Shown in pieces: positions 1,090-64,000 of a stretch of DNA of 64,000 nucleotides. The notes beneath the pieces are model-generated. The model made no database searches. It saw only the letters and a list, made by a program, of their open reading frames with translations, and had not been told where the DNA came from. The stretch is from Agelaius tricolor. Lineage: Eukaryota > Chordata > Aves > Passeriformes > Icteridae. How positions within the stretch are numbered: position 1 is the stretch's first letter; each line of letters starts with the position of its first letter. The translations under genes and the position numbers were made by a program. The stretch lies in the NCBI GenBank assembly GCA_023055355.1, contig JALJCS010000050.1:1302001-1366000 (forward strand). The letters are read 5' to 3'.

Positions 1090-1091
<2 letters not shown>

Positions 1092-1133: not shown

Positions 1134-1136
<3 letters not shown>

Positions 1137-1452
1137 CCCCACCCAGTACAGCTTCTCCAGGGGCTCCTGCTCCTTCCCTGGGGGCAGACCAGGCTCTCAG
1201 GGCTCTGCCCAGGGCCCCAGCTGTCAGGGAACCAGCACAAGCAAAACCAGCTTGGATGGCAGCCACCAGTGCTGGGCAGAGCAGCTCAGCTGCAGCACAA
1301 GGGCTGCGTGTGCCCATCCCATGACCCCCATGCAGTGACACAGGCAGCACAAAAAGGTCTGGGTTCCTTTGCTTCTGATTGCCAAGGCATGTGTGGAGCT
1401 GCAACTTACCAGGGCCCTGGATCAAAGTGTGCCTGTGGCTCTCTCCCTTCTT

Positions 1453-8844: not shown

Positions 8845-9955
8845 TTTCCCCCGTTTTTCTGTTGAACAAGCATGATTGAATGTGGTAGATATCATCTTTT
8901 GCACCATATTCTGTAAGCATATACAAAAACATGGTAAAATTAATACTAACAACAAAGCTACAATGGCTACTACAATGCCTACCTTAACAATAAAACGTAA
9001 CCATGATCCTAAGCCTAAAGATTTGAGCCATCCATCAATACCCAGGCCTGATTCTACCTGTAAGTTCCCAGTTAACCTTCGCAACTCAGAGAGCTGTGAG
9101 TGAACAGACTGCGCATGATCAGAAAGATTCATGCAACACATGCCCTCAAATTCTTCACAACCATGGCCTTGTGCAAGTAAAAGAAAATCAATTGCAGCTC
9201 TATTTTGAAGTGTCGCATGGCGAATAGAATCAACATCAAGCAAAAGACTCGAAATTGCCAAAGAAGTTGCATTTGTTTGTTTAGCAAGCCAACATCCTAA
9301 CTTGTTTAAAATAGCCTGAGCACCTGCTGCCGATACCCCTGGAGTTAAGAAAGATGCTGCAACTATGACCACTGGAGACCAAAACTTTACATCATCCTGG
9401 CAGTCCACTGCAAATGCATGAGCCATTCGTTTGCTTCTACGATGGTGGCGGCTCATGTTCAGTATCATGGACATGTTGGGTGTAAGTAGAGACAGCCGTC
9501 CAAGTGTACATGGTCCCCCGTGCAGCATTGATGGGATACTGGCCCAAGCACGGTCTCCGCATATCAGGAAATATCCTGCTGGCAATTGAATAGGGTCATT
9601 TGATGAGACTCACCCTCTCTTTGTTGTATAATTGCACCAGGCCAATGCATTACGGTAGACAGCCATGCTGGAAGTTACAACATTAGAATGGTTTTTGACT
9701 GACAGCAGGCTTCTATAGTTAAAATGAATGCATGCATCTGCCATCACTGACCCTAACAGCTCTAACTCTTGGGGTTCCTGCAGTGCTATAGGAAAGTGAG
9801 AAATCCACTGATCCCAATTATCCACACTCGTCCTAGCATTGCTGACCTTACAAGTTGGTATATGTGAAGGGCACGGCCAGGGATCTGCCGCCAATCCAAC
9901 CAAACAGGTTGTGAATGGATTGCCAGGAGAAGATAATGACAGGCAAATAGCCTCC
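8845..9955 (-). pseudogene. env: ERV env fragment (SU end and TM)
   Basis: Minus-strand env remnant. The frame to about 8824 carries the transmembrane subunit: the LQNRAAIDFLLL heptad stretch, the CX6CC motif (C-EEFEGM-CC), and a hydrophobic membrane anchor near the C-terminus. A second frame at 9610-9903 is a surface-subunit piece. A stop/frameshift near 9600 separates them, and everything upstream (gag, pol, 5' LTR) is missing beyond about 9955. The CX6CC type of env is shared by alpha- and gammaretroviruses. It is non-functional as it stands. Confidence 0.85.
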
Positions 9956-19557: not shown

Positions 19558-19969
19558 TGTAGAGAGCTTTATAGATAATTGGCTAGCTGAGAAAGGCCAC
19601 TTCGATGTGATACCGTTGGATAAAGATAGGGGAAACAAGCTGGAGATTATGCAACCAGTGTCCAATCACTGACAAAGGTCATAGTGACCTTGGCTGAAAC
19701 AAGAAGATGGGGGAGAAAATCGCTTGCTAGAAAATGAAGATAATCTAAGTAGAGAAGCTAGAAGAATGTAAACATAGAAACAAAATAATCATTAGAGCAT
19801 AGAAGTAAGTGTAGTTGATCTAAGTCTCCTTTAGCCAATAATGAGCTCAGCTTTTGCAATATGTATAAGCTTCATTAACACCAATATAAATATGTGTGAG
19901 CTTTCAATAAACTTTGAGATTTGCTATTCACGCATATTGTGTGAGGCATTTCTTCCACCGTTCACGACA
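19558..19969 (+). mobile_element. Nested solo LTR (class II ERV family)
   Basis: 412-bp LTR with TG/CA ends, plus orientation, flanked by a perfect 6-bp target duplication TCCCAG at 19552-19557 and 19970-19975. It belongs to the family of the ERV at 42674-48881 and splits the gammaretroviral gag-pro frame from the RT frame. The two host frames are in register once the insertion plus one TCCCAG is discounted, so integration hit a reading frame that was open at this point. AATAAA lies at about 19907. Confidence 0.96.
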
Positions 19970-33900: not shown

Positions 33901-35284
33901 CTCCACAGCTGTGGAGCAGCGCCGGAGATGCCGAAGCTGCGGGACACAGAGCGGCTCCGAGCGCTGTGTCCTGCAGGAGCCGGCCCCGCACACCAGAGCG
34001 ATCCCGTCAGGCTGACCCAGAGCAGGGGCAGCAGCAGGAATTGCTGCTGGGCTCTGGAAGGCGCGGATGGAGAACATTTAATGGTGGCCTGGGGGTTTGA
34101 TCCTGCTCATTGTGGTCGCTTCTGGCATGCCGGGACAGTTCCAGTCCATCTGAAGTCATGAACTCAGGAGATACTGAGGGCAACAGCAATCAAATTGCCT
34201 TCTTTACTGCAGGGAAACACAGCTTGGGAGAAGTTTCATGATTTCTGATTTAGGAACCAAACTGGGTCAGTTACTGGCCTGTGCTTTGTTCTAGTCCAAG
34301 AAGAAATTTCCAAAGTGCTGCGGTTTGGAGTTACAAACGAGCAACGTGCCTCATCACCTGGATATTGCACTTGGAGTACAGAGCTATTTGTGGTCGTTAT
34401 GATCAAGAAAACCACTGGAATTCTTTTCCCGATTTCACTCTTTATTCCTCTCTCTGGGATGAAGCCTCCAGGACTCCCTGCAGGTCTGCTTTCCAGAATC
34501 TGCTCCTCTGGAGTTGGGATTGGACAAATGAGCAGTGGGAAGAGGGAGGAAAATGGACTGTTCAAACTACAAACTCTGTTTTTGTAGCCTCTGGATTTCC
34601 AGTGTTTAGAAATTGTCATGTTTTCAACTATCTGCCCAAATCCCACATTTCTCACTTTTGCCCTGGCAGAAAACCTTCCTTGGCCCTATTTAGGAACTGA
34701 CCCTCAGAAACACCTCAGTGCAGATGCTTTTTGGTTGGTTTTGCTAACAGATGACAAGAAAATCAGTGCAAGGGGAGGCATGAGGGAGAGGGCAGAAACA
34801 ATTCCTTTCTTTTGTCTTCCTGGTAGAAAATCTCCTGCAGAGGTTGTGCTGCAGCAGGAGACTTGGTGGGCCAAGGGCTGAGGGAAGCGATTCAGCTGAG
34901 GCAGCTGAGACATCTCCTCCCTGGTTTGCAGCCCTGGGGCTGGCAGGGGACACAGCTGCCCCCCGTGCACCCCACAGCCCCTGGAATGGGGGATTCTTCC
35001 TGCCTCTGCCAGATGCTCCTTCTCCATCCCTGGCCTGGGTGCTCCTGCTCTGAGCTCCCTGCCGTGGTCATTGCTGGCGGTGGGGAGCAGGAGGGAGGAG
35101 TTCAGCGCCAACCTGGGAGGTGCCAGTGGGGCAGAGATGTGTGGAGGTGACAGTGACAGAGCGACAGGATGTGCAGATGGACACAGGGACAAGACAACAC
35201 CTCTGGGGGAAACCTCTTTGAGATTCAGAGACATTTCCTTTGGAACACACACACGGACACAGACACACAGACACAGAGTGTAGC
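33901..35284. other. Intergenic region
   Basis: No gene recognised. A duplicated-unit tail (ACACACGGACACAGACACACAG) lies at about 35248-35275. Confidence 0.45.
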
Positions 35285-35297
35285 TTTGCTGAAAGGG

Positions 35298-37107
35298 TTT
35301 ATTTCTCATTTGAGGAAAAAGGCCCAGGGCTCACAGGGGATCAGGTGATTTCTCCAGAGGTGATCATCTCCTCATGCCACTGGAGGGGGACAGGACATGA
35401 TTTTCACCAAGCGTTCCAGTGCTAAAAGACAGAGCCCAAAATGTGATGCCCTGTGTCCCCTGGACAGGAGAGGGGCCTCGTGCCCACCTCTCTTTCTAGA
35501 GGGTGAAAAGAATTGAGGTTCTGGATAAACCCAGGACAGGATTTGGCCCCTCAGATCCACAGCGTCCCCAAACCCCCTAAGCCCTGGGATGCTCCAAAAC
35601 TGGCCTGAGAACCTCCCTGCCCCCAGGGGGACTGTGGGGTTCCCAGAGCTCCCCAAGTGCAAGGAAAGACTTGGGGCTGCTCTATGCAGCCACCTTGGGA
35701 AACAGATCAGTGAAAGCTCCTTTCTGTCCCTCTGCTGGCCCCAAACTCTGCCCACCCAGAACACCCCAGGCTCCCCCATGAACCTCCCAGCACCACGTCG
35801 GGGTCAGGGGAGCACCAAGTGCTGCTCACCTATCCATGGAGAGCGGCAGCCAGGCGCTTCTGCCGCAGAACAGCCACCAGCTTTTCAGCCACAGGGGGCT
35901 GGGGACAAAGGCAGCGTTAGAGACACACTGGGGGCACTGGGCTGCACTGGGAGGCAGGGGAGAGCAGGGGCGCCCTGGGGAAGGGGCTGTGGGAGCAATG
36001 GGGTGCAGGAGCTGCTGTGCTGCTGCCCAGAAGCACTGGGCTCCTGGCCAAGAGGCACAGCTGGGGCAGGGGCTGTGTCCTGGCTCATCCAGGGGCTCCT
36101 GGGCTGACAGGGATGGGAATGCAGCAGGGCCCTGGGCAAAGGCTTCCCTGGGGAGCAGCCCTGGGGCAGGGCATTGTCTGGGCTGTCAGGAGGGGTGCAC
36201 TGGGCTCTGCTGGGACAGACTGGGATGGCCTGGGCTGTGCTGGCCAGGCAAGGGGAGGCTCTGACAGCGGCAGAACTCGTGGTACCCACCAGAGGCGTCT
36301 CCAGGACCGCGACATTGTCTAAATCCAACTGCAGAGAGACCAGGAGACCTCGCTGGTCACTGGGATGTCCCCGGTGCCAGCAAGGGATGGGGGCACACCA
36401 CTGCCCCCCAGTTCCCTGAGGGGATGCCCTCCCATGCCAGCAGCCCACTCACCTCCCGCAGATCATCTTGGGTTCCTTCCAGGAGTGCCTGGAAAGGAGA
36501 ACAAAGGCTGGGTCTGGACTGGACCTTGTGGGGCTGGGGGGGACACGGGTGCAGGGAGCAGGGCGCAGGCAGAGGGATGGGAATTCAGGGCCTCCAAGGA
36601 GATCTGTTTGAGGTGGGGGGAGACACAAAGACACTGATCTGGGGTCACTTGAGGGCCCAGGGGACAGGGCTGGGGGTGTGGAAGGAGCAGGGTGTGAGGT
36701 ACAGGGGAGGAAAAAGGAATTGAGGTGTAGGGACATGGGAGGGCAAGGGAGGGACTTGGCAGGGACAGAAGAACGAGGACAGGTGGGGACAAAACCAACG
36801 GGACTGGGAGATCATTGGAGTATGGGGAGCGAGTCAGGGAATTCTATAGGAGGACCCTGCTGCAGTGGCCAGGAAGAAAGGCAAAGGATTGAGGGGGGAC
36901 ATGGAAGGAAAGCCCTCAGGAATGGTCAGTGGGAGGGCGTTTGAGGACCCTGAATGGGACACAGAGGAGAGACCAAAAGAGTGGGAAGGGAGGCCAGAAA
37001 GGGCAGGATGTGGGGACAGCGTTTGGCTGGTGCCTCACCTTGGCCTGTGCCGGGGGGCACAGCAGGATGGAGAAGAGCAGGGCCACGCTGAGCACAGCCA
37101 CCTTCAT
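35298..37107 (-). CDS. Small secreted peptide precursor, family not recognised
   Basis: Four coding exons on the minus strand: 37039-37107 (23 codons), 36453-36488 (12), 36290-36328 (13) and 35830-35898 (22 plus TAG), all GT/AG and all phase 0, giving 70 residues. Exon 1 is a signal peptide (MKVAVLSVALLF, hydrophobic core, then CPPAQA-K). Exons 2-3 are acidic (GTQDDLRE, LDLDNVAVLE). Exon 4 is an amphipathic helix-like stretch with RQKR, a furin-type site (R-X-K-R), close to the C-terminus. A GT donor directly follows the stop, so the 3' UTR seems to be on another exon; minus-strand AATAAA lies at 35298-35303. A TATA-like GGATAAAGG lies about 55 bases before the ATG (37159-37167). A degraded duplicate lies at 28448-28736. 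It could be a host-defence peptide, hormone or apolipoprotein-like precursor; I do not recognise it. Confidence 0.7.
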
Positions 37108-37158
37108 CTTCCTCTTGCTCTGGGCAGCGCTGCCTGAGGCTGCAGCAGGTGAGGAGCA

Positions 37159-37167
37159 CCTTTATCC
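37159..37167 (-). promoter_or_regulatory. TATA-like box of secreted-peptide gene
   Basis: Minus-strand GGATAAAGG about 52-60 bases upstream of the ATG would give a 5' UTR of roughly 25 bases. Inferred from position only. Confidence 0.45.
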
Positions 37168-37911
37168 CTGCCGGGACTCCTCCCTGCACCCTCCCTGCCA
37201 GCCCCCAGGCCAAAGCCCGGCTTGGCACAGCCCCCAGCCCCCAGGCCACAAGCCCAGCCCTGGCACAGAGTCCACCCCACCCCACCTGTGGCACGGATCC
37301 AGCCCCCTTGCCCGGCATCCCTCCAGCTTCCTGCACGGGGCAGCTGCCCCTGGAAGGGCCCAGGCACCTGGGGGGCCAAGGGGGGCAGGCAGGGAGCCAA
37401 AGGCACCTGGGGACCCTGTGGGCACAGCCCCCAGTCCAACACAATCCATCCTCCAACAGCCCCCAGTGCCAGATCCCCCATCTCCTGCTGCCCCTGCCCT
37501 CCCAGAGCTTTCCCTGGGGGACACCCCAGAGCTGAGCCCGGCCCCAAACCCAACATGTGGGAGAACAAGGGGAACAAGGGACATGGGATCAGGTGGCTGA
37601 TTGGCATCTCAGCCACTGCAGACACTGGGGAGCACTGGGCAATGCTGAGCACCTGCAGACAAGGCTGAGGCCTGGGGAATGCCTCAGGAGTGACAATTCC
37701 CACATCCACACAACCCGATAGCCCTTTCCCTGCAGATGTCAAACCCCACCAAGCTCCATGCCAACAGCACTGTCCCGAGGGGAATATGCCCTGCCCTGCC
37801 CCTCATCCTGTCACACCTGCAGCCACCGAGCCCTCCCAGAGCACCTGGGTCATGGCCCTGGCTCTGGGCCCAGGCCAGCACTGGCCCTGAGCAGGATGTG
37901 CCCATCCCAGG

Positions 37912-38420
37912 CACATGGGGAAGTGGGCACCTGTCCCCAGGCAGCCACTCGGAGCTAATTGGGGTAACAGAGGTGCCCTGAGAGGAGGAGGAGGGGTGTT
38001 GGTGCCCTGCCAGCCTCTCTGACAAGCCCTGTTTACCCAGGCCCTGAGGCACCAGGAGCACATTCAGACATCTTGGGCTTCCAGGAAGGAAAATCCACAG
38101 TGAAGTGGTTCCTGAGAGCTGTCCATGGCTGGGATTCCTGTTTGACATTCCAGGGCATTAGTGAAGGGTTCTGCACATCTCTTTCCCCAGGGACAATGTG
38201 CATCCATCAGAGAAGCGTTATGGCCCAGCTGGGAAAACATTTCAGGCCACTGCCTTGATTGTTTGCTCTGGAACTCACCCAAGGAGGCGCAGGGCCCAAG
38301 GGGGAAGATTTTCCTCAGGGGTTTTGCTGCTTTGTGCCCTTGGACGAGAGACCAGAGTGTCCTCGTGGGGGATTCTTGACCAGATGGACAAGAGCTGTGA
38401 TGTCATTGGTTTTCTTAGGT
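37912..38420. repeat. Duplicated flank (partner 28918-29420)
   Basis: Upstream flank of the intact peptide gene, almost identical to the segment next to its truncated copy. A GGAGGAGGAGG stretch and CAGGGCATTAGTGAAGGGTT are shared. Confidence 0.9.
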
Positions 38421-38944
38421 CACCTTGGAGAGAAATTGAGGAAGTGCCTGCAGGACCCTAAACAGTGAATGAATGGATGAAGGAGATTCTCACTGTCCTG
38501 ACCCACTATCCAGCAAAACCACAGCCAAGGGAAGAGGCCTGGTGGAATCAGGGGGGGAGGGAGACCTTGTTGAGCCTGGTGCACACTGGGCACTGTGGGG
38601 TGATCCCCTGCTGGTGTCCCAGCTGTCAGTGCAATACCACTGCTCTGGTAAGACTGGGTCCTTAAGAAACAAAAGAAGTGTTCAAGCTCAGGGGAGGAGG
38701 GGATCTGGTCGCACTTCTCTTCTCTGGCAGTTTCTGTCCCAGGGGGGACATTACATGAGAATTGGGATGCGGTAAAGGACAGGGCTGAGGGCAGCTGCTC
38801 CCTCTCTCTCTGGGCTTCGCAGGAGGACGCTGGGAGCTGCTGCCTGGGAAAAGGAATTGGTTGCTGCGGGTGGCCAGAGCAGCTTCCCCAGGCAGGCGCT
38901 GTCAGGCGCCTGCAGCACCGAAAGCGTCTCCACTTGGGGCTGCC
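38421..38944. other. Intergenic, nothing recognised
   Basis: No feature supported; frames are short. Confidence 0.4.
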
Positions 38945-39495
38945 TTGACAACTGCCCCAGCCCAGCAGACGTCTGAGCCCGGATGGTGCAATCAAAGCCT
39001 CACCAGAGGGACGAGAGGACTCCTCGCAGAGCAGATCCAGCCGGGTTTAGTAAGGGAAAATCCAAGGGCCCAGCTGCAGTGAGGGGGAAGAGGGAAACAG
39101 GAGCAAGCAGGAACACAACCTCTGCTGAAGGGAACCAGAGGCAAAGAGCCAGGAGCAGGGCTGGGGCCAGGGTATATAACTGGAGGAAGGCAGGAGGGCT
39201 CAGGGTACAAATTATCCAATGGGGAAGGGAGTCAGGGCTGGAGTTAAGGTGGGGTGACACGGGACGCACCAATGGGGGAGCAGAGTGGGAGGGGTCTCTC
39301 AGAGAAAGCCAATGGAGGAACGGGGAGTACAGAACTTTCTGGAACTGGGGGATGAGCAGCAGTCGATTGACAACAGCACATTCACATTGACAAGCAAAGA
39401 ACCATGGGGAATTGCACCAGTCTCTCACCTTAACTTAAACAGTGGTGTCCTCCAATGGCATTCCAGGTTTGTCCTCTCCATGGCTGTGTCCTGCA
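38945..39495 (-). mobile_element. 3' LTR of second class II ERV (approximate left end)
   Basis: The minus strand shows a polypurine tract (complement of 39496-39510) followed by TGCAGGACACAG, so the right end at 39495 is firm. A minus-strand TATATA box lies at about 39172-39178 and an ACTAAA poly(A)-like site near 39047. The left end is placed at the TG of TGACAACTGCC and is uncertain. Confidence 0.6.
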
Positions 39496-40651
39496 TCTCC
39501 CCCTTTTTTATTTATTAAATAAACATTTCTCAGTGTTTTGTCAATTCTTTTCTTAAAACACATCAGTGCTGCTGAAATGATAACAACTATGAGAAGGACC
39601 CCCAATAAACTTGTAAGAATGGGGGCCACCCACACAGGAAGGCCCCACTGCATGAGAATTTTGTCCATCATGTCCACAACTTTATTTTCAGTAAGAAGAG
39701 TCTTCATTTACTCTGGCATTTGTTTGATGGTGGCCTGGATCGATGTGCTTTTCCATGACAGGTTAAAACAACAAAGTCCTTTGAAATCTTCACAACCATG
39801 GCCATAGGAGAGCAGCAGGAAGTCAATGGCCGCTCTGTTCTGAAGGGTGGCATGTCTGGTGGTTTCCTCGTCCGCTAGAAGGTCTGATAAGGCAGCGGAT
39901 GTAGCCTTGGTCTGCTTACTAAGCCAGCACTCCAGGTGAGAAAGCTCACCAAGGGCCTTCGCAGCTGCAACCCATGGTAGAAAGATGGAAACAGCGACCC
40001 TCTTCATCTTGCCCCAATTATAAATTTGGCCATCACAATTTTGATTGAATTGGGAGTACGATCTTTTCTGGGGCACCAATTGAGTTTCTTGTTTCCAATT
40101 TTTAATTTGGGTAGTGTTTGGGGTGAGGGTAGTAAGCTGACCAAGACTGCAGGGGCCCCCTTTGATCTTCGATGGGATCCCTGCCCACACCCTGTCACCA
40201 CAGATGAGAAACACTCCCTTGGGAAGCACTCTGGGAAACGGAGAGGACTTAGATAATGTTTTGGCAGTATAATTGCACCAGTCAACATCATTGTATCTCT
40301 TATCATTTGGTGATTTATCTTTTCTCACTATCATCTGTGGTTCAGATTTCTCATGCCAATTTTGTTGGGGTGGCTCCTAGAAAAAGTTGACACAAGAAGT
40401 CGCTTTGAGGAGCCCGGTAGGTCTAGTTCTTGGAGCTCCTGTGGTGCATGGGGTAAGATCTTCATCCACTCGTCCCAGGTGTCTACCAGGGTGGGCTTCT
40501 TACCTGCACAGGGATATTCATTTGGTGACAGGGGGATTCCCACCAGACATGTAGACAGCGGGTCTTTTGCACCTCCCATGGCCATGCAAAAGTTATCCTG
40601 CTTGAGAGATTTCCCCAGTGTGACCCATAGGTTTTCCGTTGGTTGTGGCAC
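39496..40651 (-). pseudogene. env: Env of second class II ERV
   Basis: Surface-subunit piece (40331-40651, CLVGIPLSPNEYPC), then a frame 39708-40334 holding the end of SU and the TM ectodomain: LQNRAAIDFLLL and CX6CC (C-EDFKGL-CC). A stop precedes the frame 39435-39707 that holds the membrane anchor (LLGVLLIVVIISAALMCF). Related to the env at 8845-9955 and the TM at 48115. The stop between ectodomain and anchor disables it. Confidence 0.85.
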
Positions 40652-40810
40652 GACCTATCCAACCGCTGTTTGGATGCACAGGAGCACAGTGACGGTGGCA
40701 GCAGCTGTTAAGGTATTTCGGGGTGTCCTGGGAGTGGCCATCTGGTCCTCCAGTGAGTCAGGTATCGACTGTTCAAGCACTGATAGAAACATGAATGGTC
40801 AAGTTAGTTG

Positions 40811-42403
40811 TCACTGTAATTTTCTTCGTTTTGTCCCTATGGAAGGGAGGGCGAGGGATTGGCAATTGGGGCAGGTGGAGACAATTGCCTTGGCTTGGTC
40901 TCTGGAAATCTTAAATTGACCTACTAAAGCTGGAGCATTCTGAGGGAAGAATGCATGGCTTAGACGAGCCTGTTGAAAGACATGTGGTGCAGCGGGGGAA
41001 ATGTGGGTGGCACTTGCTGCCATTGCTAACAAGTCTGCTCTCCGGTTGCCCTCAGTGATGTATCTTGGCAGCTCTGTGTGCGACGGGACGTGCAGGATGT
41101 GATAAGGTTGCTCTCTGTGGGAGATGAACCAAATTAATTCAGAGAGCAAGCTGTAGAATTTTTTATTTTGGACTTCCTTGATCAGGGCATGCTCTGCCCG
41201 CTCTGCTATCCCAGTGACATATGCAGAATCTGTGACTGAATTGAAGGGTGGTTGGAATGTTCGAAACGCCCTCACAGCTGCAGCAAATTCTGCAGTCTGG
41301 GGGGAACCTTCAACAACCTGGATATCAGACTCCCACTTCTGAGTGTCTGGGTCCCTCCAGGTGAACACTGACTGGTGAGATTTGCCTGAACCGTCAGTGA
41401 ACTCCGTGATAGAGTTTTTGAATGGGGTTTTACTTTTATCTGATTTTGGGGCCAAATGCAGTGAATCTTTAAAAAGTCTGTGTTTAGGATAATGAATTGA
41501 AGTTTTTCCGGGATAGCTGTCGAATGAAATTTGCAGATGATCATTTGTTTGTAATAGAGAATCCAGTTGTTCCAAAGTATAAGGGAGGTAAATGCACGCC
41601 GGATCACAAGCTGCGAGGGTCCGGAGGCGATGTCGGCCTTTAATAATAAGTTTGGCTACAAGTTCTGGTGGGGTGGTAACTGTTTGATGTGGTTGGTGCA
41701 GCAGAAAAAGCCACTCGATGATGATGATGAGTGGGGTTTTTGAAGTATCATCCCACTGAAAGAGCAGCGAATGGAAGTTTGGGCACTTACCAGAAATACC
41801 GAGGCTGAGGGGAAGGGACCGGTCTGTCCGATGTGCCTGGCGGTGTTTGATGGCGCTGGCGACTCTCTCCAAAGCCTCCCAGGCTTCTGGCGTTAGCGAG
41901 CGTGGGGAAGCCAGGTCGCCGTCTCCTCGTAGAAGGTCGAAGAGCGGTGCCAGTTCTTCTGTGGTGAGGCCCAGGAGAGGTCGGATCCACGTGATGACGC
42001 CGCACAGCTGTTGCGTGTCTCTTAATGTCTGGGGGTGCTCGTTGATGGACAGAGTTTGAGGCACGATGGTCCTTCCTGTGATTAAAAACCCGAGGTACTT
42101 CCATGGGCTCCATAGCTGGATTTTTTCCTGAGCTTTCTGAAACCCTGCGCTTTCGACAGCTGCGACAGTCTTGGAAAGTGCTGTGTCTGAGTATGACTTG
42201 GTGGAAGCACAGATTGGTACATTGTCCGTGTAATGTAGGTGTGAGACTCTGTCCAAAGTTTCTCTCATCTGCCTCACAATCGTCATTGGGGACCACTGAA
42301 GAAAAGCCCCTTGTCTGAAGTTTCTGGCCCTGTTGGAGAAAGTTACATGCCAAGGGCTCCAAGACCTGAGCACAGCTCCTGGCATTGCTAAGCTATTGTT
42401 CAC
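40811..42403 (-). pseudogene. pol: RT-RNase H of second class II ERV, integrase deleted
   Basis: A 530-codon frame starts inside the RT palm; fingers and everything upstream are missing. The catalytic YMDD box is altered to YTDN (LHYTDNVPIC). The thumb and connection follow (WSPWKYLGFLITG), then RNase H (FTDGSGKSH, QTAEFAAAVRAF, VTDSAYVTG, GNRRADLLA) and the integrase zinc-binding start (SHAFFPQNAPAL, CPNCQ). It then stops, and env begins about 160 bases later, so the integrase core and C-terminus are deleted. The frame stays open despite RT inactivation. Confidence 0.88.
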
Positions 42404-42673
42404 AGGTGTGTTTGCTGTATGCTACACTGAACCCAATGAAAGGAAGAAAGGGGCCCCTTGCCTTTTTGTAACAATAGCCTTGGAAGTTGTCCCACCTCTC
42501 GGCCTGGCTGGACTTCTCCTGAGTTTTGGGTGGTCCCCCACAGAAGACCCCTCACTTGTCTTACAACGGCCGTGACAGACAGACTGAGATGTACAAGGCC
42601 TCTCCATCAAAGACCGAGACATGAAATCCCTATGTGAAAAGGCCCCCCCACACTCTTTCCAAGGACTGGGACT
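42404..42673. other. Short unexplained segment between two ERVs
   Basis: 270 bases that match neither the ERV on its left nor the CR1 flanking the other end of the ERV on its right. Nothing recognised. Confidence 0.4.
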
Positions 42674-43086
42674 TGTAGAGAGCTTTTTGGATAATTGGTT
42701 AGCTGAGAAAGGACATTCCGATGTGATACCGATGGATAAGGGTAAGAGAAACAAGCTGGGAACTGAGCAACCGGTGCCTAATTACTGACGAAGGTCACAG
42801 TGACCTTCTCTAAAACGGGAAGACGGGGGAGAAAATTGCTTGCCAGAAAATGTAGCTATCCCAAGGTAGAGAAATTAGAAGAATGTACACATAGAAGCAA
42901 AATAATTGTTAAGAGATAGAAGTAGGTGTGTTTGATCTAAGTGTGCTTTAACCAATAATGAGCTCGGCTTTTGCAATATGTATAAGCTTCATTAACACTA
43001 ATATAAATATGTGTGGAGTTTCAATAAACTTCGGGATTTGCTATTCATCGCATATGGTGTGTCGCATCTCTCCCGCCGCTACGACA
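42674..43086 (+). mobile_element. 5' LTR of class II (beta-like) ERV
   Basis: 413 bp, TGTAGAGAGC to GCTACGACA. TATAAATATG near 42998 and CAATAAAC near 43023 give U3/R/U5 order. Compared by eye with the 3' LTR (48469-48881) it differs at roughly nine positions, about 2%, indicating a fairly recent insertion. Confidence 0.95.
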
Positions 43087-43088
43087 AA

Positions 43089-43106
43089 TGGTGACCCCGG
43101 ACGCGT
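43089..43106 (+). promoter_or_regulatory. Primer-binding site, tRNA-Trp-like
   Basis: Two bases after the LTR the sequence is TGGTGACCCCGGACGCGT. Its first 11-12 bases match the tRNA-Trp primer site of avian leukosis-type viruses, which then diverges. Confidence 0.75.
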
Positions 43107-43293
43107 TCCTTCGGCACTAGCCACGGTCGGAGGCGTAAAAGTCAAGTGCAGGTCCTTTCGCGGCTGGGGACGGCAAAAAACACCGCTGAAAAAAGAAGGT
43201 GTCAAGTGCCCCGGGTGAGCTCAGAGGAGTGCCCGGCTGCTACGTGCTGCCGGACCTGAATAGAGCCGCAAGAAGCGCGCTATCGTCGTTAAA

Positions 43294-45030
43294 ATGGATA
43301 AAGACAGGCAAGCAGCATATGATTTATTTACTGACTTTTTACGAGGGCGTCAGATTAGAGGAATAGATTTACAGAAAGAACTTCCTGGGTTGTTAGCTTA
43401 TGGGTGTGCACAGGGGTTTTTTCGTAATCCACATACAGTGCATGAATTGTCGGAGTGGCGTATATTCGGGGATAAGCTGTGGCACGCAGTCATAGATGAC
43501 GATAAGACCGCGAAAAGGTGGGGGAAGTTATGGCGAGTCGTTCATGATGAATTGCTAAAATACCAGGCAGAGGAAAGAGCTGCCCGGCAGGCCAGTGCAG
43601 CTCATGAAAGGAACAGGAGTTATGGGGACTGGTTTGGTTCCCCGCTGCCTCCTGTTACGCCCACAGTCAATCTGCCGCCGGCATTGCCTTCTACCTTAAA
43701 CGGCAGTTTCCCACCCCCATCGGTGCCTGCTCTAAGCAGCACGGCCCCGCCAGCTTCGGCGCCTGTTTTGACGGGCACCCCCTCACCGATTTCGGTTCCT
43801 GCCTCGGGTGGCGGTCTGCCGCCGGCACCGGCATCTGCAATAAGCGGCGGCTCCCCGCCAACCCCAGCCCCCGCTCCAGACAACGGCTCCCCGCCGCTAC
43901 CAGTTCCTCTTTCGGGCAGCAGCCCCCCCCCGGGTGTCCTCCAGCCGTGCCGTCCGCGCCGCCTGTCCTGGTGTTGAGCCCTACACCTCCTCCGCTTAGC
44001 GGTTCGACCGTCCCCGGGTCGGACGGTGACCTTGCAAGGGCCGTTGCTCAGCAGCGAAGGGAGGCATGGGCGGCGGTAGCTAAAGAATTTATGGACACGG
44101 GGGATGAGGAGGCAAGATCGGCTGCTATGGAAATGGCCTGCCCGGTGGTCTATTCTCCCCAGCCGGGGGGAGGGTCTCAAGCCACAATAACTGCCCTGGA
44201 CTGGAAACTGTTATCGCAGTTACGATCCACAGTTAGTCAATTTGGAGTAACTAGTGAACCCACAAAACAAATGCTGGATTACATGGGGCACTCAGGTTTT
44301 GCTGCCGGCAGATTGCAGGACGGTAACGCGGCTCATTTTTACTCAACACCAACAGCTTTTATTTAATGCCCATTGGCAGGCGATTTGTCAGCAATGTGTC
44401 GCAGTGGTACGGCAACCAGGAGACCCGTTATATGGGGTGACCCTGGAGGAGTTAATGGGGTTCGGGCCGTTTCTTAGAACGGAGGCACAAGCATTGATTG
44501 GGCCCGAAAAGTGCAGGGAGGCTATGCGGTTAGCACGTTTAGCTATCGACAGAATTAAGGACCCAGGAGGAATTCCTTCTTACATGGGAATGAAGCAAGG
44601 TATGGAAGAGTCTTTCGGAGCTTTTATAGACAGGGTAGCCAGCGCTATTGAACGAGCAGGAGTCCCTGAATTCATGAAAGGGTCCATGCTCAAACAATGC
44701 GCACTTCAAAACGGCAATCAGCTTACCAAGAATGTGATAAATACCCTGGGGGCTAATTGGTCTATAGAGGAAGCTTTAGAGCGATTAGCAAATGTTCTGC
44801 TGGGATCACAAGCAATGTTAGTAGATGCTATTAAAGAGCTAGGGGCCGGGTTGCAGAAGCAGGCAGAGTCCTCTCAAAACCAAGTACTGGCAGCCCTCGC
44901 CCCGCTCCAAGCAGCTGCAATAAATGCTCCACGAGCTCCATCGACTGGCCGATTCAAATGCTACCGATGTGGAGGAATGGGACATGCGCGACGGGACTGT
45001 CCCGCCGTCAGTGTTTGGTGTAGCCGTTGA
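43294..45030 (+). pseudogene. gag: Gag of class II ERV, two frameshifts
   Basis: Matrix starts at 43294 (MDKDRQAAYDLF) and runs into a Pro/Ser-rich linker whose frame ends at 43977. The next segment is in another frame (43947-44366), and the capsid returns to the first frame (to 45030), so indels lie near the C-run at 43921-43932 and near 44310-44345. The capsid has a major-homology-like SFGAFIDRVASAIE and the nucleocapsid one clear CCHC knuckle CYRCGGMGHARRDC. The breaks would prevent a full Gag. Confidence 0.88.
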
Positions 45031-45881
45031 CGCCTGGACACCCACAATACCGGAATCTGCAGATGCCGCTCGGGAAACCGCAGAGCCAGCGCGCCCGCCA
45101 GCCGCCACGCCCAGACACAAATAGCAGCTGTCACAACTTCGACTCAACCTGCCTCCAGCCCGCAACTGCCGGGAGCCTTGGACTAGACCTCGAAGCAGCA
45201 GCAGCCGTGACTTTGATGACTACTCGCCCGGAGAAGGTTCCAACTGGGGTAAAAGGGCCACTCATTATTGACGGCTTACCTATGGGGGCTCTGCTTTTAG
45301 GGCGTTCCTCGGCTACAATGATGGGATTATTTGTTTTATCTGGAATAATAGACGCTGATTATACAGGGGAGATTTCTATTATGGTGCATACTCTTTTTCC
45401 ACCGATGCGGATCGAAAAGGGACAAAGGATAGCTCAATTGATTCCTCTGCAGCAGTTGGCTAAGACTGTACCCCCTCGCCAGGCACAGTCCAGAGGAGAG
45501 CATGGATTCGGACCCACGGGGGGCCTTGCCCTTTTGACAATGAACTTAAATGAACGGCCAAAGAGCACTGTTGTTTTGGACTATCAGGGCGAAAGGCGAA
45601 CCTTGGAAGGACTGTTAGACACTGGCGCAGACTCCAGCATTGTGAGTCCGGATTTTTGGCCCCACGATTGGCCATTGCAGTCAACTACTATGCCAGTAAC
45701 CGGAGTTGGAGGCCTGACACTTGCAAGGAAGACACCCATGCTATCTGTGACGGTTGAGGATAAAACTGTACGAGGTGTTTTGTCAGTTGTACCTTTGCCT
45801 CCTACTGTGCAGTGTCTAATCGGTCGGGACATTCTGGCTCAGATGGGTGTGGTTTTGACAAATGAGCACCCTTTAGGCTAA
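45024..45881 (+). CDS. pro: dUTPase-protease (Pro) of class II ERV
   Basis: The frame is -1 relative to the last gag frame. The first half is a dUTPase-like fold (GLDLEAA, GLFVLSGIIDADYTGE, RIEKGQRIAQLIPL), which in betaretroviruses sits upstream of protease. The second half is the aspartic protease: LLDTGADSSIV active site, then IGRDILAQMG near the C-terminus. Both motifs are intact. dUTPase would keep uracil out of viral DNA; protease matures Gag. No convincing gag-pro slip site is visible, as a TAG at 45021 closes the pro frame just upstream. Whether it is expressed is doubtful given the broken gag. Confidence 0.85.
   Translation, partial: PLTPGHPQYRNLQMPLGKPQSQRARQPPRPDTNSSCHNFDSTCLQPATAGSLGLDLEAAAAVTLMTTRPEKVPTGVKGPLIIDGLPMGALLLGRSSATMMGLFVLSGIIDADYTGEISIMVHTLFPPMRIEKGQRIAQLIPLQQLAKTVPPRQAQSRGEHGFGPTGGLALLTMNLNERPKSTVVLDYQGERRTLEGLLDTGADSSIVSPDFWPHDWPLQSTTMPVTGVGGLTLARKTPMLSVTVEDKTVRGVLSVVPLPPTVQCLIGRDILAQMGVVLTNEHPLG
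45869..45875 (+). promoter_or_regulatory. Candidate pro-pol -1 frameshift site CCCTTTA
   Basis: C_CCT_TTA fits X_XXY_YYZ in the pro reading frame, two codons before the pro stop (45879-45881). A slip of -1 leads straight into the long pol frame, which is open from here. A downstream pseudoknot was not modelled. Confidence 0.6.
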
Positions 45882-48583
45882 GGGCCATTGCATGGACTTT
45901 CCCAATCCCATTGACCTGGACCACGAACACTCCGGTATGGGTTAAGCAGTGGCATTTAAAAAGGGAAAGTCTCGAGCAGGTTCACATGCTGGTATACGAA
46001 CAATATAAACAAGGACATTTACAGCTGTCAACAAGTCCATGGAACACGCCCATCTTTGTGATTAAAAAGAAGTCGGGAAAGTATCGCTTAATACATGATT
46101 TGCGAGCTGTGAATGAACAGATGGAGCCTATGGGAGCCTTACAACCCGGATTACCTAACCCAGCTATGCTGCCAAGGGACTGGCCACTTCTGATTATTGA
46201 TCTGAAGGACTGCTTCTTTACTATTGCTCTGCATCCTCGAGATACTCGGAGGTTTGCATTCACTTTGCCTTCTTTAAACAGAGCAGAGCCGGACAAGAGA
46301 TTCGAATGGGTTTCTCTTCCCCAGGGAATGCGGAACAGCGCCACCTTGTGTCAACTTTATGTCGCTGCAGCTCTACAGCCCTTGCGGCATGCCTGGCCTG
46401 ACACAATTATTTATCATTATATGGATGACATTCTATTTGCACAACCAGAACCTTTTGCGCGTCAACAAATTCAGGCAATACATGATGCTCTGAAGCTCCA
46501 TGGACTGACTGTAGCTCCTGAAAAAATTCAGTTGTCTGCACCGTGGAAATATTTGGGGTGGACACTTACTGATCAAATTGTTACCCCTCAAAAATTGCAA
46601 TTAAACATCAAATTACATACATTGCATGATGTTCAGAAATTACTGGGGGATCTACAGTGGCTATGCCCCATTGTTGGTATCCCTAATGACCTCTTGGACA
46701 AGCTTCGACCTTTACTGAAGGGGACTGATCCGGCACAGCCTGTTCGTATAGCCCCTGAACAGGCTGAGACATTGCAGCAGATATTGGACTGTGTTACACA
46801 AGGCAGTGTTCGGAGACGTGATCTCGACCTTCCTATACAGCTGATGGTTTGGTGCGGGCCAAAATTTTTACTGGGTGCACTTACTCAGCATAACAGAAAA
46901 ACGGGGGAGACATGGGCCTTGGAATGGATATCTCCTCCACTTCAACAACATAAAACCCTTCTTCAGAAAATTGAAAGTCTAGCTGATCTGCTTAAAAAGG
47001 GTCGTGAACGGACAATACAGATTATGGGAAAGGAACCTGATCAGATACAGATACCAATGAAAAAGGATACATTGACCTGGTATCTGGCAAACAGTATGGA
47101 GTTACAAGAGGCCCTGTTGGGAGCCGGTAGCATGACTGCCACTGATGATATTCCCAATGTACCATTGAATTGGGTAGGACAATGGGGTTGGATTCAATGC
47201 CCAAAAAGATCACTGAAGTCCTTATCGGATGCTACAACTGCCTACACTGATGCAGGAAGAAAATCTAAAACTGCTGCAGTGACCTGGCGAGAAAAGGGAC
47301 AATGGCATCATCACATACTCCGAGCTACTGAGGTGGACACTTTACAAACGATGGAGCTTTTGGCTGTTGTATGGGCCATGATGCATTTCTCTGGACCTCT
47401 TAACATTGTAACAGATTCTTTGTATGTTGCAGGAGTGTGTGAGAGAATAGAGGATGCCTCCATAAAAGAGGTTCAAAACAGGAGGTTACACGAGCTGTTT
47501 ATGCAACTGCAGAGAGCAATTAGGCTAAGGACGCATTCCTTTTGTGTTATCCATATCAGAAGTCACAAATGGGATATTGGTCTGGGAGAAGGTAACATGC
47601 GAGCAGATAAGTTAGTCTCAGTCACACAAGCAACTCCGATTCCCAAACAGACCATAGCCAGAGAGGCACACTCCATGTTCCACCAGAATGGAAAAGGCCT
47701 TCATAGAGAATTTCAAATATCTATGGAGGAGGCACGGGCAATAGTCAAAGCCTGTCCTATATGCAGTCATCATAATGGAGGCTGTGGTTTAGGTCTGGGA
47801 GTTAACCCAAGAGGGCTGAGCACAAATGAGACCTGGCAAATGGATGTCACACATGTGGCAGAGTTTGGGAGGTTGAAGTATGTACATGTTACCATAGACA
47901 CTTACAGTCATTTTATATGGGCCACAGCGCAGACTGGTGAGAAAGCAGGGCAGGTAGAGAGACATCTCAGCAGTTGTTTTGCAGTAATGGGAGTACCACA
48001 GCGTATCAAGACAGACAATGGGCCTGCTTACAGTAGCAAAAGAATAAAGCAATTTCTGCAAATGTGGGGAATAGAGCACATAACCGGCATCCCCAATTCT
48101 CCTACAGGACAAGCGATTGATTTTCTCTTACTTGCACAAGGCCATGGCTGTGATGAATTTGAGGGCATGTGTTGCATGAATCTCTCTGATCATGCACAAT
48201 CTGTACACTCACAGCTCTCTGAGTTACGGAGGTTAACTGGGAACTTACAGGTGGAATCAGGCCTTGGTATTGATGGATGGCTCAAATCTTTAAACTTAGG
48301 ATCATGGTTACGTTCAATTATTAAGGTTAGCATTCTAGTAGCTATTGTAGTTTTGTTGTTAGTATTAGTTTTGCCTTGTTTTTGTATATGCTTGCAGAAT
48401 ATGGTGCGAAAGATGATAACTACTGCATTTAATCAAACTATGCTTGTTCAACAGAAAAACAGGGGAGATGTAGAGAGCTTTTTGGATAATTGGTTAGCTG
48501 AGAAAGGACATTCTGATGTGATACCGATGGATAAGGGTAAGAGAAACAAGCTGGGAACTGAGCAACCGGTGCCTAATTACTGA
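45875..48583 (+). CDS. pol-env: Pol fused in frame to Env transmembrane domain
   Basis: One open frame of about 900 codons. RT: KYRLIHDLRAVN, LIIDLKDCFF, LPQGM and an intact YHYMDDILFA. RNase H: YTDAGRKSK, MELLAVVWAM, VTDSLYVAG, MRADKL. Integrase: zinc-binding HSMFHQ and CPICSHH, first Asp in WQMDVTH, second in IKTDNGPAYSS. At about 48114, after SPTGQ, the frame passes directly into env TM (AIDFLLLAQGHGC, CX6CC C-DEFEGM-CC), then a membrane anchor rich in Leu/Val, and ends inside the 3' LTR. The third catalytic residue (Glu) and integrase C-terminus, plus all of SU, are deleted. RT and RNase H motifs look intact; integration activity should be lost. Whether the fusion is translated is unknown. 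Confidence 0.93.
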   Translation, partial: RLRAIAWTFPIPLTWTTNTPVWVKQWHLKRESLEQVHMLVYEQYKQGHLQLSTSPWNTPIFVIKKKSGKYRLIHDLRAVNEQMEPMGALQPGLPNPAMLPRDWPLLIIDLKDCFFTIALHPRDTRRFAFTLPSLNRAEPDKRFEWVSLPQGMRNSATLCQLYVAAALQPLRHAWPDTIIYHYMDDILFAQPEPFARQQIQAIHDALKLHGLTVAPEKIQLSAPWKYLGWTLTDQIVTPQKLQLNIKLHTLHDVQKLLGDLQWLCPIVGIPNDLLDKLRPLLKGTDPAQPVRIAPEQAETLQQILDCVTQGSVRRRDLDLPIQLMVWCGPKFLLGALTQHNRKTGETWALEWISPPLQQHKTLLQKIESLADLLKKGRERTIQIMGKEPDQIQIPMKKDTLTWYLANSMELQEALLGAGSMTATDDIPNVPLNWVGQWGWIQCPKRSLKSLSDATTAYTDAGRKSKTAAVTWREKGQWHHHILRATEVDTLQTMELLAVVWAMMHFSGPLNIVTDSLYVAGVCERIEDASIKEVQNRRLHELFMQLQRAIRLRTHSFCVIHIRSHKWDIGLGEGNMRADKLVSVTQATPIPKQTIAREAHSMFHQNGKGLHREFQISMEEARAIVKACPICSHHNGGCGLGLGVNPRGLSTNETWQMDVTHVAEFGRLKYVHVTIDTYSHFIWATAQTGEKAGQVERHLSSCFAVMGVPQRIKTDNGPAYSSKRIKQFLQMWGIEHITGIPNSPTGQAIDFLLLAQGHGCDEFEGMCCMNLSDHAQSVHSQLSELRRLTGNLQVESGLGIDGWLKSLNLGSWLRSIIKVSILVAIVVLLLVLVLPCFCICLQNMVRKMITTAFNQTMLVQQKNRGDVESFLDNWLAEKGHSDVIPMDKGKRNKLGTEQPVPNY
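48452..48468 (+). promoter_or_regulatory. Polypurine tract
   Basis: Purine-rich GAAAAACAGGGGAGA run immediately before the 3' LTR, the plus-strand priming site. Confidence 0.8.
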
Positions 48584-48881
48584 CGAAGGTCACAGTGACC
48601 TTCTCTAAAACGGGAAGACGGGGGAGAAAATTGCTTGCCAGAAAATGTAGCTATCCCAAGGTAGAGAAATTAGAAGAATGTACACATAGAAGCAAAATAA
48701 TTGTTAAAAGATAGAAGTAGGTGTGTTTGATCTAAGTGTGCTTTAACCAATAATGAGCTCGGCTTTTGCAATATGTATAAGCTTCATTAACACTAATATA
48801 AAAATGTGTAAGCTTTCAATAAACTTCGAGATTTGCTATTCATCGCATATGGTGTGTCGCATCTCTCCCGCCGTTACGACA
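48469..48881 (+). mobile_element. 3' LTR of class II ERV
   Basis: 413 bp, TGTAGAGAGC to GTTACGACA, about 98% identical to the 5' LTR. The base pairs next to the two outer ends (GGGACT left, AGCACT right) do not form a clean target duplication. Confidence 0.95.
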
Positions 48882-59958: not shown

Positions 59959-60933
59959 GAGAGAAAGCAGAAAGTGCCCCTCAGCTGAGGGCTCCTGTGC
60001 CCTTGTGCCAAGGCCTGCGGTGCCCAGGCCATGCTGGCTGTGCCCAGAGCTGTGCCCAGAGCTGCCCATCCCTGCTGCCTTTGGCAGCAGAGCAGGAGGG
60101 CAGGACATGTGCCCAGCCTGCAGCCAGCCACGGCACATCCAGCCCTCAGCAGCTGCCCAGAGCAGGATGCTCCTGTGCTCGCTGCCATCTCCCAAAAGCT
60201 CTGATCCCACCCTGCCAAGCACACAGGGACCCACCTCACGCCAGCCACGGCTGCAAGAAAAGCTGCTCCCAAACCACGTCCTCAGCCTTCTCCAAGGCCA
60301 CCGCCCATCCACGCCACAGCTGCTCCCAAGCACTTCCCCATCCACACTGGACCACCTGGAACGCTTCCTCTGGAAAAACAAACAACATATTCTTGAAAAG
60401 AGATTACAGACAAAAAGGGAAAACAAGAAAAACGGGAAAAAATCTTATCCCTGTCAGGGCCTTGAGGAAGGCCCAACTCCTACATGGTAGGGAAAAACCC
60501 ACCCACGGGTGAGGGAAGCCCACACTTTCTCCCTTCCCCCCTGCACTGCCCCCCAAAATCACGGTGATCCCAAAGCAAACAAGGGCAGTGCAGCAGCCCA
60601 GCCCTTCCTTGCCTGCAGAGCAAAGCAGCCCCTGCACAGCTTCTGGAGTCCCACCTCTGCTCCCACCATGGGGCTTTGTTTGTGTCGGGCTGGCTGCCCC
60701 AGCCCCAGCCCCAGCCCCAGCCCAGGCCACGGTGGCTGCTGGGGGCTGTTGGCAGGGCCAGGAGCCCACTCCCATTTCATACCCAGCCCAGCCCATGCCC
60801 CAGCCCTGCCAAAAGCAGCTGGGCAGCGACTGAAGAATGAGTTGCATCTGCCCCAGCAGAGGGGGAACCTTTGCTTCCCAGCCAGGCTGGGCCATGCCCA
60901 AATCTGGCAGCATTTCCCCAGGTGGGGACTCAC

Positions 60934-61050
60934 CTGCAAATTCCCTGTGGAGTTTGGCTTTGAAGAAAGTGCCAGAATCAAAGTCCATCACCTTCAGCCT
61001 CCAGTGGCCAGGCTGAGGAAGAGCTTCTCATCCTTGATGTCATCCTGGCT
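60934..61050 (-). pseudogene. Decayed PIM-like kinase exon 3, 3' part (copy 2)
   Basis: Counterpart of 970-1085 with the same DFD change, MDFDSGTFF and EFAG ending, so it decayed before the segment duplicated. Confidence 0.6.
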
Positions 61051-61055
61051 GTCTC

Positions 61056-61079
61056 CAGCAGCAGCAGCAGCAGCAGCAG
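61056..61079. repeat. (CAG)8 microsatellite
   Basis: Same site as 1092-1133 but eight units against fourteen. Confidence 0.97.
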
Positions 61080-61397
61080 CATCCCCACCCGGTACAGCTT
61101 CTCCAGGGGCTCCTTCTCCTTCCCTGGGGGGAGACCAGGCTCTCAGGGCTCTGCCCAGGGCCCCAGCTGTCAGGGAACCAGCACAAACAAAACCAGCTTG
61201 GATGGCGGCCACCAGTGCTGGGCAGAGCAGCTCAGCTGCAGCACAAGGGCTGAGTGTGCCCATCCCATGACCCTGTGCAGTGACACAGGCAGCACAAAAA
61301 GGTCTGGGTTCCTTTGCTTCTGATTGCCAAGGCATGTGTGGAGCTGCAACTTACCAGGGCCCTGGATCAAAGTGTGCCTGTGGCTCTCTCCCTTCTT

Positions 61398-63895
61398 CTA
61401 CGGCCGAGGAATATCCTGCACCCAAGGATCACAGAACAGGTCTTCTAATGTGGGTCTTTCCAAGGAGTTCACAGATAAACACCACCTGATCAGATCTTTG
61501 CACTCTGGGCAGAGAAAGCAGAAACTGCCGGTCAGCCAGAGAAGGCTCCTGTTGGCTTTGCCCCACTATTCCCATGCCCAGGCCTTGCTGCATGCGCTCA
61601 GGGCTGGGCCTAAACTTTCCCATCCATTCCCTGTTTTGGAGGAGAGCAGGACATGTGCCACCTCCTCAGCAGCTGCCAGAGCGGGATGCTCACGAGCCCG
61701 CTGCTGGCTCCCAGCACTGGGATTCCCCCCGTGCCCAGAGAAGAGGATCCACCTTGAGAGAGCCCTTGTGGCAGCGGGAGCTGGCCCCAGCTGAGGTTCC
61801 GGCCCCTCCTGAAAGGGTGCTCCCCGCAGACCATCTGGTGCAGCAGGATGCCCAGGGACCAGATCGTTGCTGCCTCGCCATGGTACCAGCCAAAGTGGGT
61901 CCATTCCGGGGGGCTGTAGGACAGTGTTCCTATGGAATACAGATGGAGTTCAGCAGGGGGATGCTGCTGCTCCCAGAGCCTGGCCCCACCATCCCTGGGC
62001 CTGCGGGGGCTGCATCAGTGGCACACAGGGTGACCACTGCCCTCTCGCCAGCACCTGGGACTTGTGCACAAACTAAGGCGTGGAAAAGAAGCCACTGGTG
62101 TCAGAAGAGGGCAGAGGAAGCCCTGGCTAAGCCTGACCATGACAAGCAAAGGAAAAACCCTCCTTGTGCTGGGGAAAACATGCCCTTATCCTCCCTGTCT
62201 GCATTGCCCCAAAAATATTAGGAAGCAAAGGCAAACAGGGAGAGTTGAGCAGTGCAAGCCCTTCCTCTTGCCTGCACACCAAACTGGCTGGGGCACAGGT
62301 TCCGCCCCCCTCTCTGCTACCCCCACCCACGGGGGTTTTGGTCGGGCTGGCTGCCCCAGCCCAGCCCCAGTCCTGGGCAGAGTGGCTGGCAAAGGCTGCC
62401 AGCAGGGCTGGAAGATGGCTCCCCACCCAGCCCCGCTCTAAAGCAACTCAGCTGAAGACTCAGTCCCCTGACTGGCAGCAAAAGGGAGAATCCCCACTGC
62501 CACAGCCAGCTTGGGCTGGGAGATGTTGGCCATGAGATCCCAGGACCAGGAGTACACCCTTACGTGGGCTCACCTGCAAAGTGGGTGTAGGCTGTCTCTT
62601 GCAGGTAGGTGCCACAGCCAAAGTCAATCAGTTTGGCCTGCCCGGTGGCCAGGTCAAGCACGATGTTCTGAGGTTTGATGTCGCGGTGCAGGACCCCGCA
62701 GCTGGTGCAGTGCCACACGGCCTCCAGCACCTGGCGGAACAGCTCCCGCGCCACCTCCTCGGGCACGAACCGCCGTGCCCGAATGACACGATGCAGGTCC
62801 TGACACCGCTCTGGCCGCTCCAGCACCATCACGATGTCGTTGGGGAGCTCGAACCACTCCAGGAGCTGCACCACGCCGGGGAAGCCAGTGGACACCTTGG
62901 CCTGCAGCACGATCTCCAGCGGGGCCCTGCTGCCGTCGGGCTGCGGGAGGAGCACGATGCCCTCAGTGGGGCCGATGCCGTGCCAGGCCTGGGGAAGCCC
63001 TGAGCCAGCCCGGGATGCTCTGCGCCCTGCGCTGGACCCACGCCCGCTCCCCCTCGAGGCGTCCTGGCGGCTTCCACCGTGCCGGGCCTCGGCTCATCCC
63101 CGCCCGGCAGCCCCGGCTGCTGCCGCTGGCCCCGCTCACTCACCAGCTCGCCCCAGTGCCGGACGCGGTTCCGTGGCACCCTCTTGATGGCCACCTGCAA
63201 GCCAAGGACAGCAGCGGCCTCAGCTCGCCGCCCGCCCTGCCCAGCCCCATCCTCCTCCTCGTCCTCCTCCTCGTCCTCCTCCGTCCCCTCCTCCTGCGCC
63301 CGCCGCCGGCCCCGCCGCTCACCGGGGCGCCGTCCGAGAGCCGCGTGGCCGCGAAGACGCTGCCGAATCCTCCGCGCCCCAGCAGCGAACCCAGGCGGTA
63401 GCGCTCCTGCAGGGCCTCGTGCGCCGTCCCTGCGGGCGGGACGCGGCTGTCAGCGCTCGGCCCGGGGCCAGCAACGGCCCCCGAGCGCCCCTCAGCCGCC
63501 CCGGGCCGGCCATGCCCAGGCCTTCGCTCCTCGCAACGCGGCACGGGAGGCTCGGGGCCGGCGGCCGCGCTGCCGAGCGGCGGAGCTCGGGCCGGGGAAG
63601 CCGCAGCGGAGGCGGCGGCAGCGGCCGCGCCGCCTGTGTCCTCCGCGGGCCCCGGGAGGAGCCGGGGCCGGGGCCGGGGCCGGGCTCGGGGCTGGAGCCT
63701 GCCTCGGGGCCGGGGCCGGGCTCGGGCCAGGCGGAGGCAAAGGGCGGCAATGCCGCCCCCGCACACGGCACTGATGCCCGCCCAGCAGCGCCACCGCCAG
63801 TAGGGCCAGAGCCGGGCGGAGGCGAGACCGCGGCGGGACGGGCGGGGCCGGGCACGGGGCAGCCCCGCCCGGGGCCGGGGGCGGGCCGGGGGCAT
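61398..63895 (-). CDS. PIM-like serine/threonine kinase, copy 2
   Basis: Five coding exons on the minus strand: 63323-63895, 63144-63194, 62574-62940, 61753-61929 and 61398-61504, total 1275 nt (424 residues, two more than copy 1 in the Arg/Pro-rich extension). All kinase motifs are present: GRGGFGSVFA, VAIK, LERPERCQD hinge, HRDIKPQN, DFG, then HFAGTLSYSPPEW (Leu where copy 1 has Pro) and WSLGILL. Other differences from copy 1 fall mainly in the N-lobe of exon 3: VLQAKV for VLLAKV, EWFELPNDI for EWLELPNHI and CQDLHRVI for CQDLQRFI. The frame is open through every exon and splice sites are conserved, which argues for a functional recent paralogue. The upstream promoter is only partly inside the window. 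Confidence 0.85.
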
Positions 63896-64000
63896 GGCCC
63901 AGCCCGGCAGGGGGAGAGGGAGGCGGGGACACGAGAGGGAGGCGGGGAGAGGAGAGGGACGCCGGGCAAGGGACCCCGGGAGAAGGGTCCCCGACGGCGG

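What the first reader, a model, noticed from the sequence alone, without database searches (positions are those of the whole stretch)
45875..48583. In-frame Pol-Env fusion created by an internal deletion in an ERV
The pol frame keeps intact RT and RNase H motifs, loses the integrase catalytic Glu and C-terminus, and enters the env transmembrane domain without a frame break near 48114. Both parental sequences appear to share GC-ATTG at the join, which suggests microhomology-mediated deletion or template switching. The predicted product is a membrane-anchored RT-RNase H-truncated integrase. A single long open frame over 2.7 kb is surprising if the element were simply decaying.
Basis: partly seen in the sequence, partly recalled or inferred. 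Interest (0 to 1): 0.8.

Follow-up and report, generated by a model that had tools for sequence, protein, structure and literature searches.

The report
Defective bird provirus, Pol-Env fused in-frame
A young, defective bird retrovirus relic lost about 1.9 kb, which happens to join its polymerase frame to the end of its envelope frame; the evidence points to one insertion later copied along with its neighbourhood, so it looks ordinary rather than a new working gene.

Summary
A class II (beta-like pol, avian-type env) provirus lies at 42674-48881. Its pol frame is open into the env transmembrane region, to the stop at 48583. RT, RNase H and the first two integrase acidic residues are present; the third and the integrase C-terminus are gone. 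Against an undeleted relative 1927 bp are missing; the ends share 4-7 nt (GC[G/A]ATTG).

The larger reading fails. The join occurs twice in 1.157 Gb: here and on contig C87. Both copies share one 5' insertion point, found nowhere else, and over 11 kb of upstream flank. C87 keeps the GGGACT target duplication; the window copy has a foreign right flank, probably from LTR-LTR recombination. So: one insertion, duplicated inside a PIM1-like kinase array, not a mobilised deleted form.

The open frame is unremarkable: 6 of 10 close relatives have no stop or deletion over the same 2.2 kb of pol. Changes private to the window copy are 7 amino-acid-changing to 4 silent, near neutral, although the two copies overall show a silent excess. 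Gag is frame-broken in both. A second, independent in-frame Pol-TM fusion exists once. HERV-K type 1 is the known parallel.

The parts
42674..43086 (+). 5' LTR (TGT...ACA), preceded by GGGACT; PBS-like TGGTGACCCC follows 2 nt after it
   Evidence: the C87 5' LTR differs by 1 of 413
43294..45030 (+). gag (p24, zinc knuckle), broken into three overlapping ORFs
45027..45881 (+). pro frame with dUTPase and aspartyl protease
45869..45875 (+). CCCTTTA, a canonical -1 slippery heptamer just before the pro stop (rule recalled; not tested)
   Evidence: sequence
45911..48112 (+). pol part of the fused frame: RT, thumb, RNase H, integrase zinc finger and core without the last catalytic residue and C-terminal domain
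48113..48119 (+). deletion join, GCGATTG shared by pol and env sides (7 nt, or 4 nt exact with the commoner env allele)
48113..48583 (+). env part of the fused frame: TM ectodomain with CX6CC, membrane span, tail; stop inside 3' LTR
48469..48881 (+). 3' LTR; 9 of 413 differ from the 5' LTR, 4 of them in a run; right end probably from another LTR (inferred)
39708..42673 (-). older minus-strand ERV (pol, env pieces) in which the provirus sits; the uninterrupted target site (up to 3 mismatches) occurs 83 times

Best explanation
A replication-defective class II ERV. During reverse transcription (most likely) or later in the chromosome, a jump between short shared sequences removed about 1.9 kb covering the end of integrase and most of env SU. 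By a one-in-three chance the two frames stayed in register, giving a Pol-TM open frame. The provirus sits in a minus-strand ERV within a PIM1-like kinase array; the stretch was then duplicated, giving copies on C50 and C87, and the right end of the C50 copy was exchanged with another LTR. The frame is open because the element is young, not because the fusion is kept by selection. Shown: deletion, join, shared insertion point, two copies, LTR and flank divergence. Inferred: reverse-transcriptase jump, LTR exchange, absence of function.
For: Join with up to 3 mismatches: 2 places in the genome. 5' insertion point: the same 2. C87 copy flanked by GGGACT on both sides; uninterrupted target site present 83 times, 24 exact. 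Flank 34000-39000 differs by 0.76% between the copies (0 to 2.25% per 400-bp bin) and the C87 LTRs by 3 of 413: young, insertion and duplication close in time. Pol free of stops and deletions in 6 of 10 relatives (insertions not counted). Window-private pol changes 7 nonsynonymous, 4 synonymous, against a neutral 0.68 to 0.28. Two other deletions over the same stretch among the 18 env-side loci: C73 (in frame, single copy) and C35 (out of frame), each with at least 4 shared bases at the join. gag broken in both copies.
Against: Over the whole fused frame the copies differ at 33 codons, 19 silent and 14 changed, a significant excess of silent ones (P about 0.0005). Ten of 31 pol differences have both alleles in other ERV copies, which points to gene conversion, but the 21 private ones are also silent-rich (10 changed, 11 silent, P 0.02), driven by C87 (3 to 7). 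Both copies keep the frame open. Whether C87 is a paralogue or the other allele was not settled. The donor of the right flank was not found. Gag of relatives was not examined.
Confidence: 0.87

Rival explanations
1. The deletion form is a mobile, non-autonomous subfamily, like IAP 1-delta-1 or HERV-K type 1.
For: Two copies with identical breakpoints on two contigs; such forms spread in mammals.
Against: Both copies have the same 5' insertion point and share over 11 kb of flank. No third copy at up to 3 mismatches.
Confidence: 0.04
2. The fused frame is a host-kept gene for a membrane-anchored RT-RNase H.
For: Frame open in both copies; fewer amino-acid changes than expected between them.
Against: Window-private changes look neutral (7 to 4); relatives' pol frames are often as open (6 of 10); gag broken; Env's own start deleted. 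Of 120 listed proteins (456 hits) 18 had a match on the env side or across the join; the two env-side ones without listed SU or integrase C-terminal domains and the two with a match across the join were realigned, and none shows this join.
Confidence: 0.03
3. As the best explanation, but the deletion happened in the chromosome after integration and before the duplication.
For: The short shared sequence also fits microhomology end joining; the join is seen at one insertion point only.
Against: No undeleted provirus at the same site, though none would need to survive.
Confidence: 0.3
4. Assembly artefact.
For: Repetitive array, where assembly is hard.
Against: Join seen on two contigs with differences around it.
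Confidence: 0.03

Closest known systems
HERV-K(HML-2) type 1 (292-bp deletion)
   Same: Class II ERV; a deletion at the pol-env boundary removes the pol stop and joins the frames in phase; [quoted passage not shown]
   Different: There 292 bp, near the beginning of env, and present in many proviruses; here about 1.9 kb, integrase core cut, SU gone, one insertion event
Mouse IAP 1-delta-1
   Same: Internal deletion of 1.9 kb giving an in-frame fusion of two retroviral genes (PMC6466679, passages)
   Different: gag-pol rather than pol-env; mobilised in trans and amplified
C73:1309783 copy in the same genome (L019)
   Same: Same ERV family, independent deletion joining pol in frame to env TM, shared bases at the join
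   Different: Other breakpoints; integrase catalytic Glu kept; single copy; frame ends just after the membrane span

Membership tests
Class II (beta-like) avian ERV | p24 gag, dUTPase-protease in a separate frame, pol with RVT_thumb, LTRs TG...CA (defining set recalled) | tested here: met
Class II (beta-like) avian ERV | Avian-type env | tested here: inconclusive
   SU is deleted here and the fused frame has no Pfam env match; a related env in the window (8827-9609, minus) matches Avian_gp85 and TLV_coat, and its TM-LTR stretch resembles this one at 85% DNA identity
Amplified deletion derivative (IAP 1-delta-1, HERV-K type 1 kind) | Same breakpoints in separate insertions | tested here: not met
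Amplified deletion derivative (IAP 1-delta-1, HERV-K type 1 kind) | Deletion fuses two frames in phase | tested here: met
Domesticated retroviral gene | Selection on the frame after integration | tested here: inconclusive
   window-private 7 N to 4 S; C87-private 3 N to 7 S; ten with both alleles elsewhere, 4 N to 6 S
Domesticated retroviral gene | Expression | not testable with these tools
   no RNA reads

The most novel reading that the evidence does not exclude
The fused frame is translated from the duplicated proviruses as a membrane-anchored RT-RNase H and is kept by weak selection.
Probability: 0.03. Interest if true: 0.7.

Novelty: new member of a known kind. Interest (0 to 1): 0.2.

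Why it matters
It is a clean worked example of how identical breakpoints on two contigs can mislead: flank and target-site analysis points to duplication of the host locus rather than spread of the element. It also shows recurrent pol-to-TM deletions in one young avian ERV family: three different ones met here, two of them in frame.

Tried and rejected
Mobilised deleted form: rejected for this assembly. Selection on the fused frame: the raw silent excess first looked like constraint; splitting differences by presence in ten relatives showed the window lineage near neutral and part of the rest mosaic, e.g. the run 46303-46332 in C87, three of its five alleles shared with the C67 copy. Donor of the window's right flank: a provirus with a 5' end at the AGCACT site was sought and not found (0 matches), so the LTR exchange rests on the exact LTR end, the clustered LTR differences, and the 23 other C50/C87 places whose match to the flank stops at or within 4 nt of the LTR end (nine of the 23 read). 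One place elsewhere, C30:812031-812453, aligns across LTR end and flank at 78% and could not be fetched; it might be a related insertion. Fused proteins in other birds: of the 120 listed (456 hits), 16 had an env-side match, 14 of these with a listed SU, TLV_coat or integrase C-terminal domain; P0034, P0049, P0021 and P0040 were realigned: in P0034 and P0049 over 100 residues lie between the pol and env parts, P0021 and P0040 carry the integrase C-terminal domain. The other 336 hits were not listed. Literature: the listings showed no avian pol-env fusion of this kind; that covers only the held open-access library and these terms. Copy number of the C35 (L005) join was never obtained.

Full report
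What is there. The window is C50:1302001-1366000 of a 1.157-Gb genome in 214 contigs. A provirus runs from 42674 to 48881 on the plus strand, with LTRs of 413 bp. gag, pro and pol lie in different frames; pro carries dUTPase and protease, pol carries RT, thumb, RNase H, integrase zinc finger and core. The pol frame has no stop until 48583, and a CCCTTTA heptamer lies just before the pro stop (the slippery-site rule is recalled).

The join. The query 48000-48240 matches relatives in two separate blocks, 1-120 for pol and 114-241 for env. In the undeleted copy on C40 the two sides are 1927 bp further apart. The pol side reads GCGATTG; the env side GCGATTG in 5 and GCAATTG in 13 of the 18 env-side loci examined. 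The exact overlap is therefore 4 to 7 nt. This fits a reverse-transcriptase jump or microhomology end joining; the data do not separate them.

Copies. With up to 3 mismatches the 39-nt join occurs twice. The C87 copy has the same left flank, over 11 kb of which aligns to the window (pieces at 95-97%, with tandem repeats at the far end), and GGGACT on both sides. The 5' insertion point occurs only in these two copies. The target without the insert occurs 83 times at up to 3 mismatches, 24 exact, 22 of those on C50 and C87. So there was one insertion, into a minus-strand ERV of the array. The window copy's right flank begins AGCACT exactly at the LTR end. That flank is found at 23 other places on C50 and C87, and at lower identity on other contigs, among the 40 scored of 3824 candidates; nine of the 23 were read, and none has the LTR there. 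The window 3' LTR differs from its 5' LTR at 9 of 413 sites, against 3 of 413 in C87. An exchange between the 3' LTR and another LTR inserted at AGCACT explains this; no donor 5' end was found, and one 78% match across LTR end and flank on C30 could not be fetched.

Age and constraint. Between the copies the flank 34000-39000 differs by 0.76%, the stretch 39000-42673 (mostly the target ERV) by 2.48% and the provirus by 1.31%, with peaks of 5.5% (target ERV) and 3.5% (provirus interior) in single 400-bp bins and 7.3% in the last 82 bp of the 3' LTR. The ERVs being more different than the flank, in runs, points to gene conversion from other ERVs. In 46240-46720 the window copy is nearer to nine proviruses on other contigs than to C87, yet both share an allele seen in none of the ten others compared, and six such alleles over pol. 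Of 31 pol differences, 11 are private to the window (7 changing, 4 silent), 10 to C87 (3, 7), and 10 have both alleles elsewhere (4, 6). The overall silent excess is real (P 0.002 for these 31; P 0.0005 for the 33 codons of the whole frame), and P is 0.02 for the 21 private ones, but the window lineage alone shows none. The ten relatives are the best ones besides the window and C87 copies among 40 scored of 77 candidates. Six of them have no stop and no deleted base over 45911-48112; the other four have stops, deletions or both (insertions in them were not counted). With 10 to 11 changes per copy a stop-free frame has a chance of about 0.6, indels left aside. Nothing here calls for selection on the fusion.

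Context in the family. Of 18 env-side loci, two more (L005, L019) join pol to the TM region by other deletions, and several others have smaller gaps or shortened similarity to the C40 env. L019 (C73) is in frame through the membrane span, keeps the catalytic Glu, and occurs once. L005 (C35) is out of frame. At the L005 join 5 bases are shared; at the L019 join 4 exactly, 11 of 12 with one mismatch (read). L014 and L015 on C21 share a gap pattern with unlike right flanks, so another deleted form of this family may have spread; not followed.

Would it work? The normal route to Pol needs Gag translation (recalled). Gag is split over three ORFs in the window copy and two in C87; gag of relatives was not examined. 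The fused frame has its only strong hydrophobic stretch near residue 808 and lacks the start of Env. A membrane-anchored enzyme is therefore possible on paper but unlikely to be made.

Known kind. HERV-K type 1 proviruses carry a 292-bp deletion that fuses pol and env in frame (PMC7007669, PMC524368, passages; table passage in PMC3625200). IAP 1-delta-1 elements carry a 1.9-kb deletion with a gag-pol fusion and spread in trans (PMC6466679, passages). The present element is a new, non-amplified member of this kind.

Noticed in passing
1-4037 and 59959-64000: The two ends of the window are 96.6% alike, which suggests a tandem unit of about 60 kb; both hold PIM1-like kinase exons (2618-3148, 62563-63093, minus; PIM-1 is the best solved match for the first). 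C50 and C87 look like parts of a PIM1-like array; a zebra finch expansion is on record (Kong 2010, seen only as a cited reference)..
   Followed up: partly
L019 (C73:1309783): Independent in-frame fusion of pol, with catalytic Glu kept, to env TM; single copy.
   Followed up: yes
L014, L015 (C21): Two proviruses with the same gap pattern in integrase/env but unlike right flanks: a deleted form that may have spread.
   Followed up: no
8432-9609 (minus), 19558-19969: A related ERV end with env, and an LTR for which no body was looked for; 82-85% like this provirus, 90% like each other over the LTR.
   Followed up: no
46129-46270: Six alleles within 142 bp shared by the window and C87 copies and absent from ten relatives, possibly a tract acquired by the founder.
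   Followed up: no
C30:812031-812453: A 78% match running across the window's LTR end and its right flank, perhaps a related LTR at a similar site; could not be fetched.
   Followed up: no
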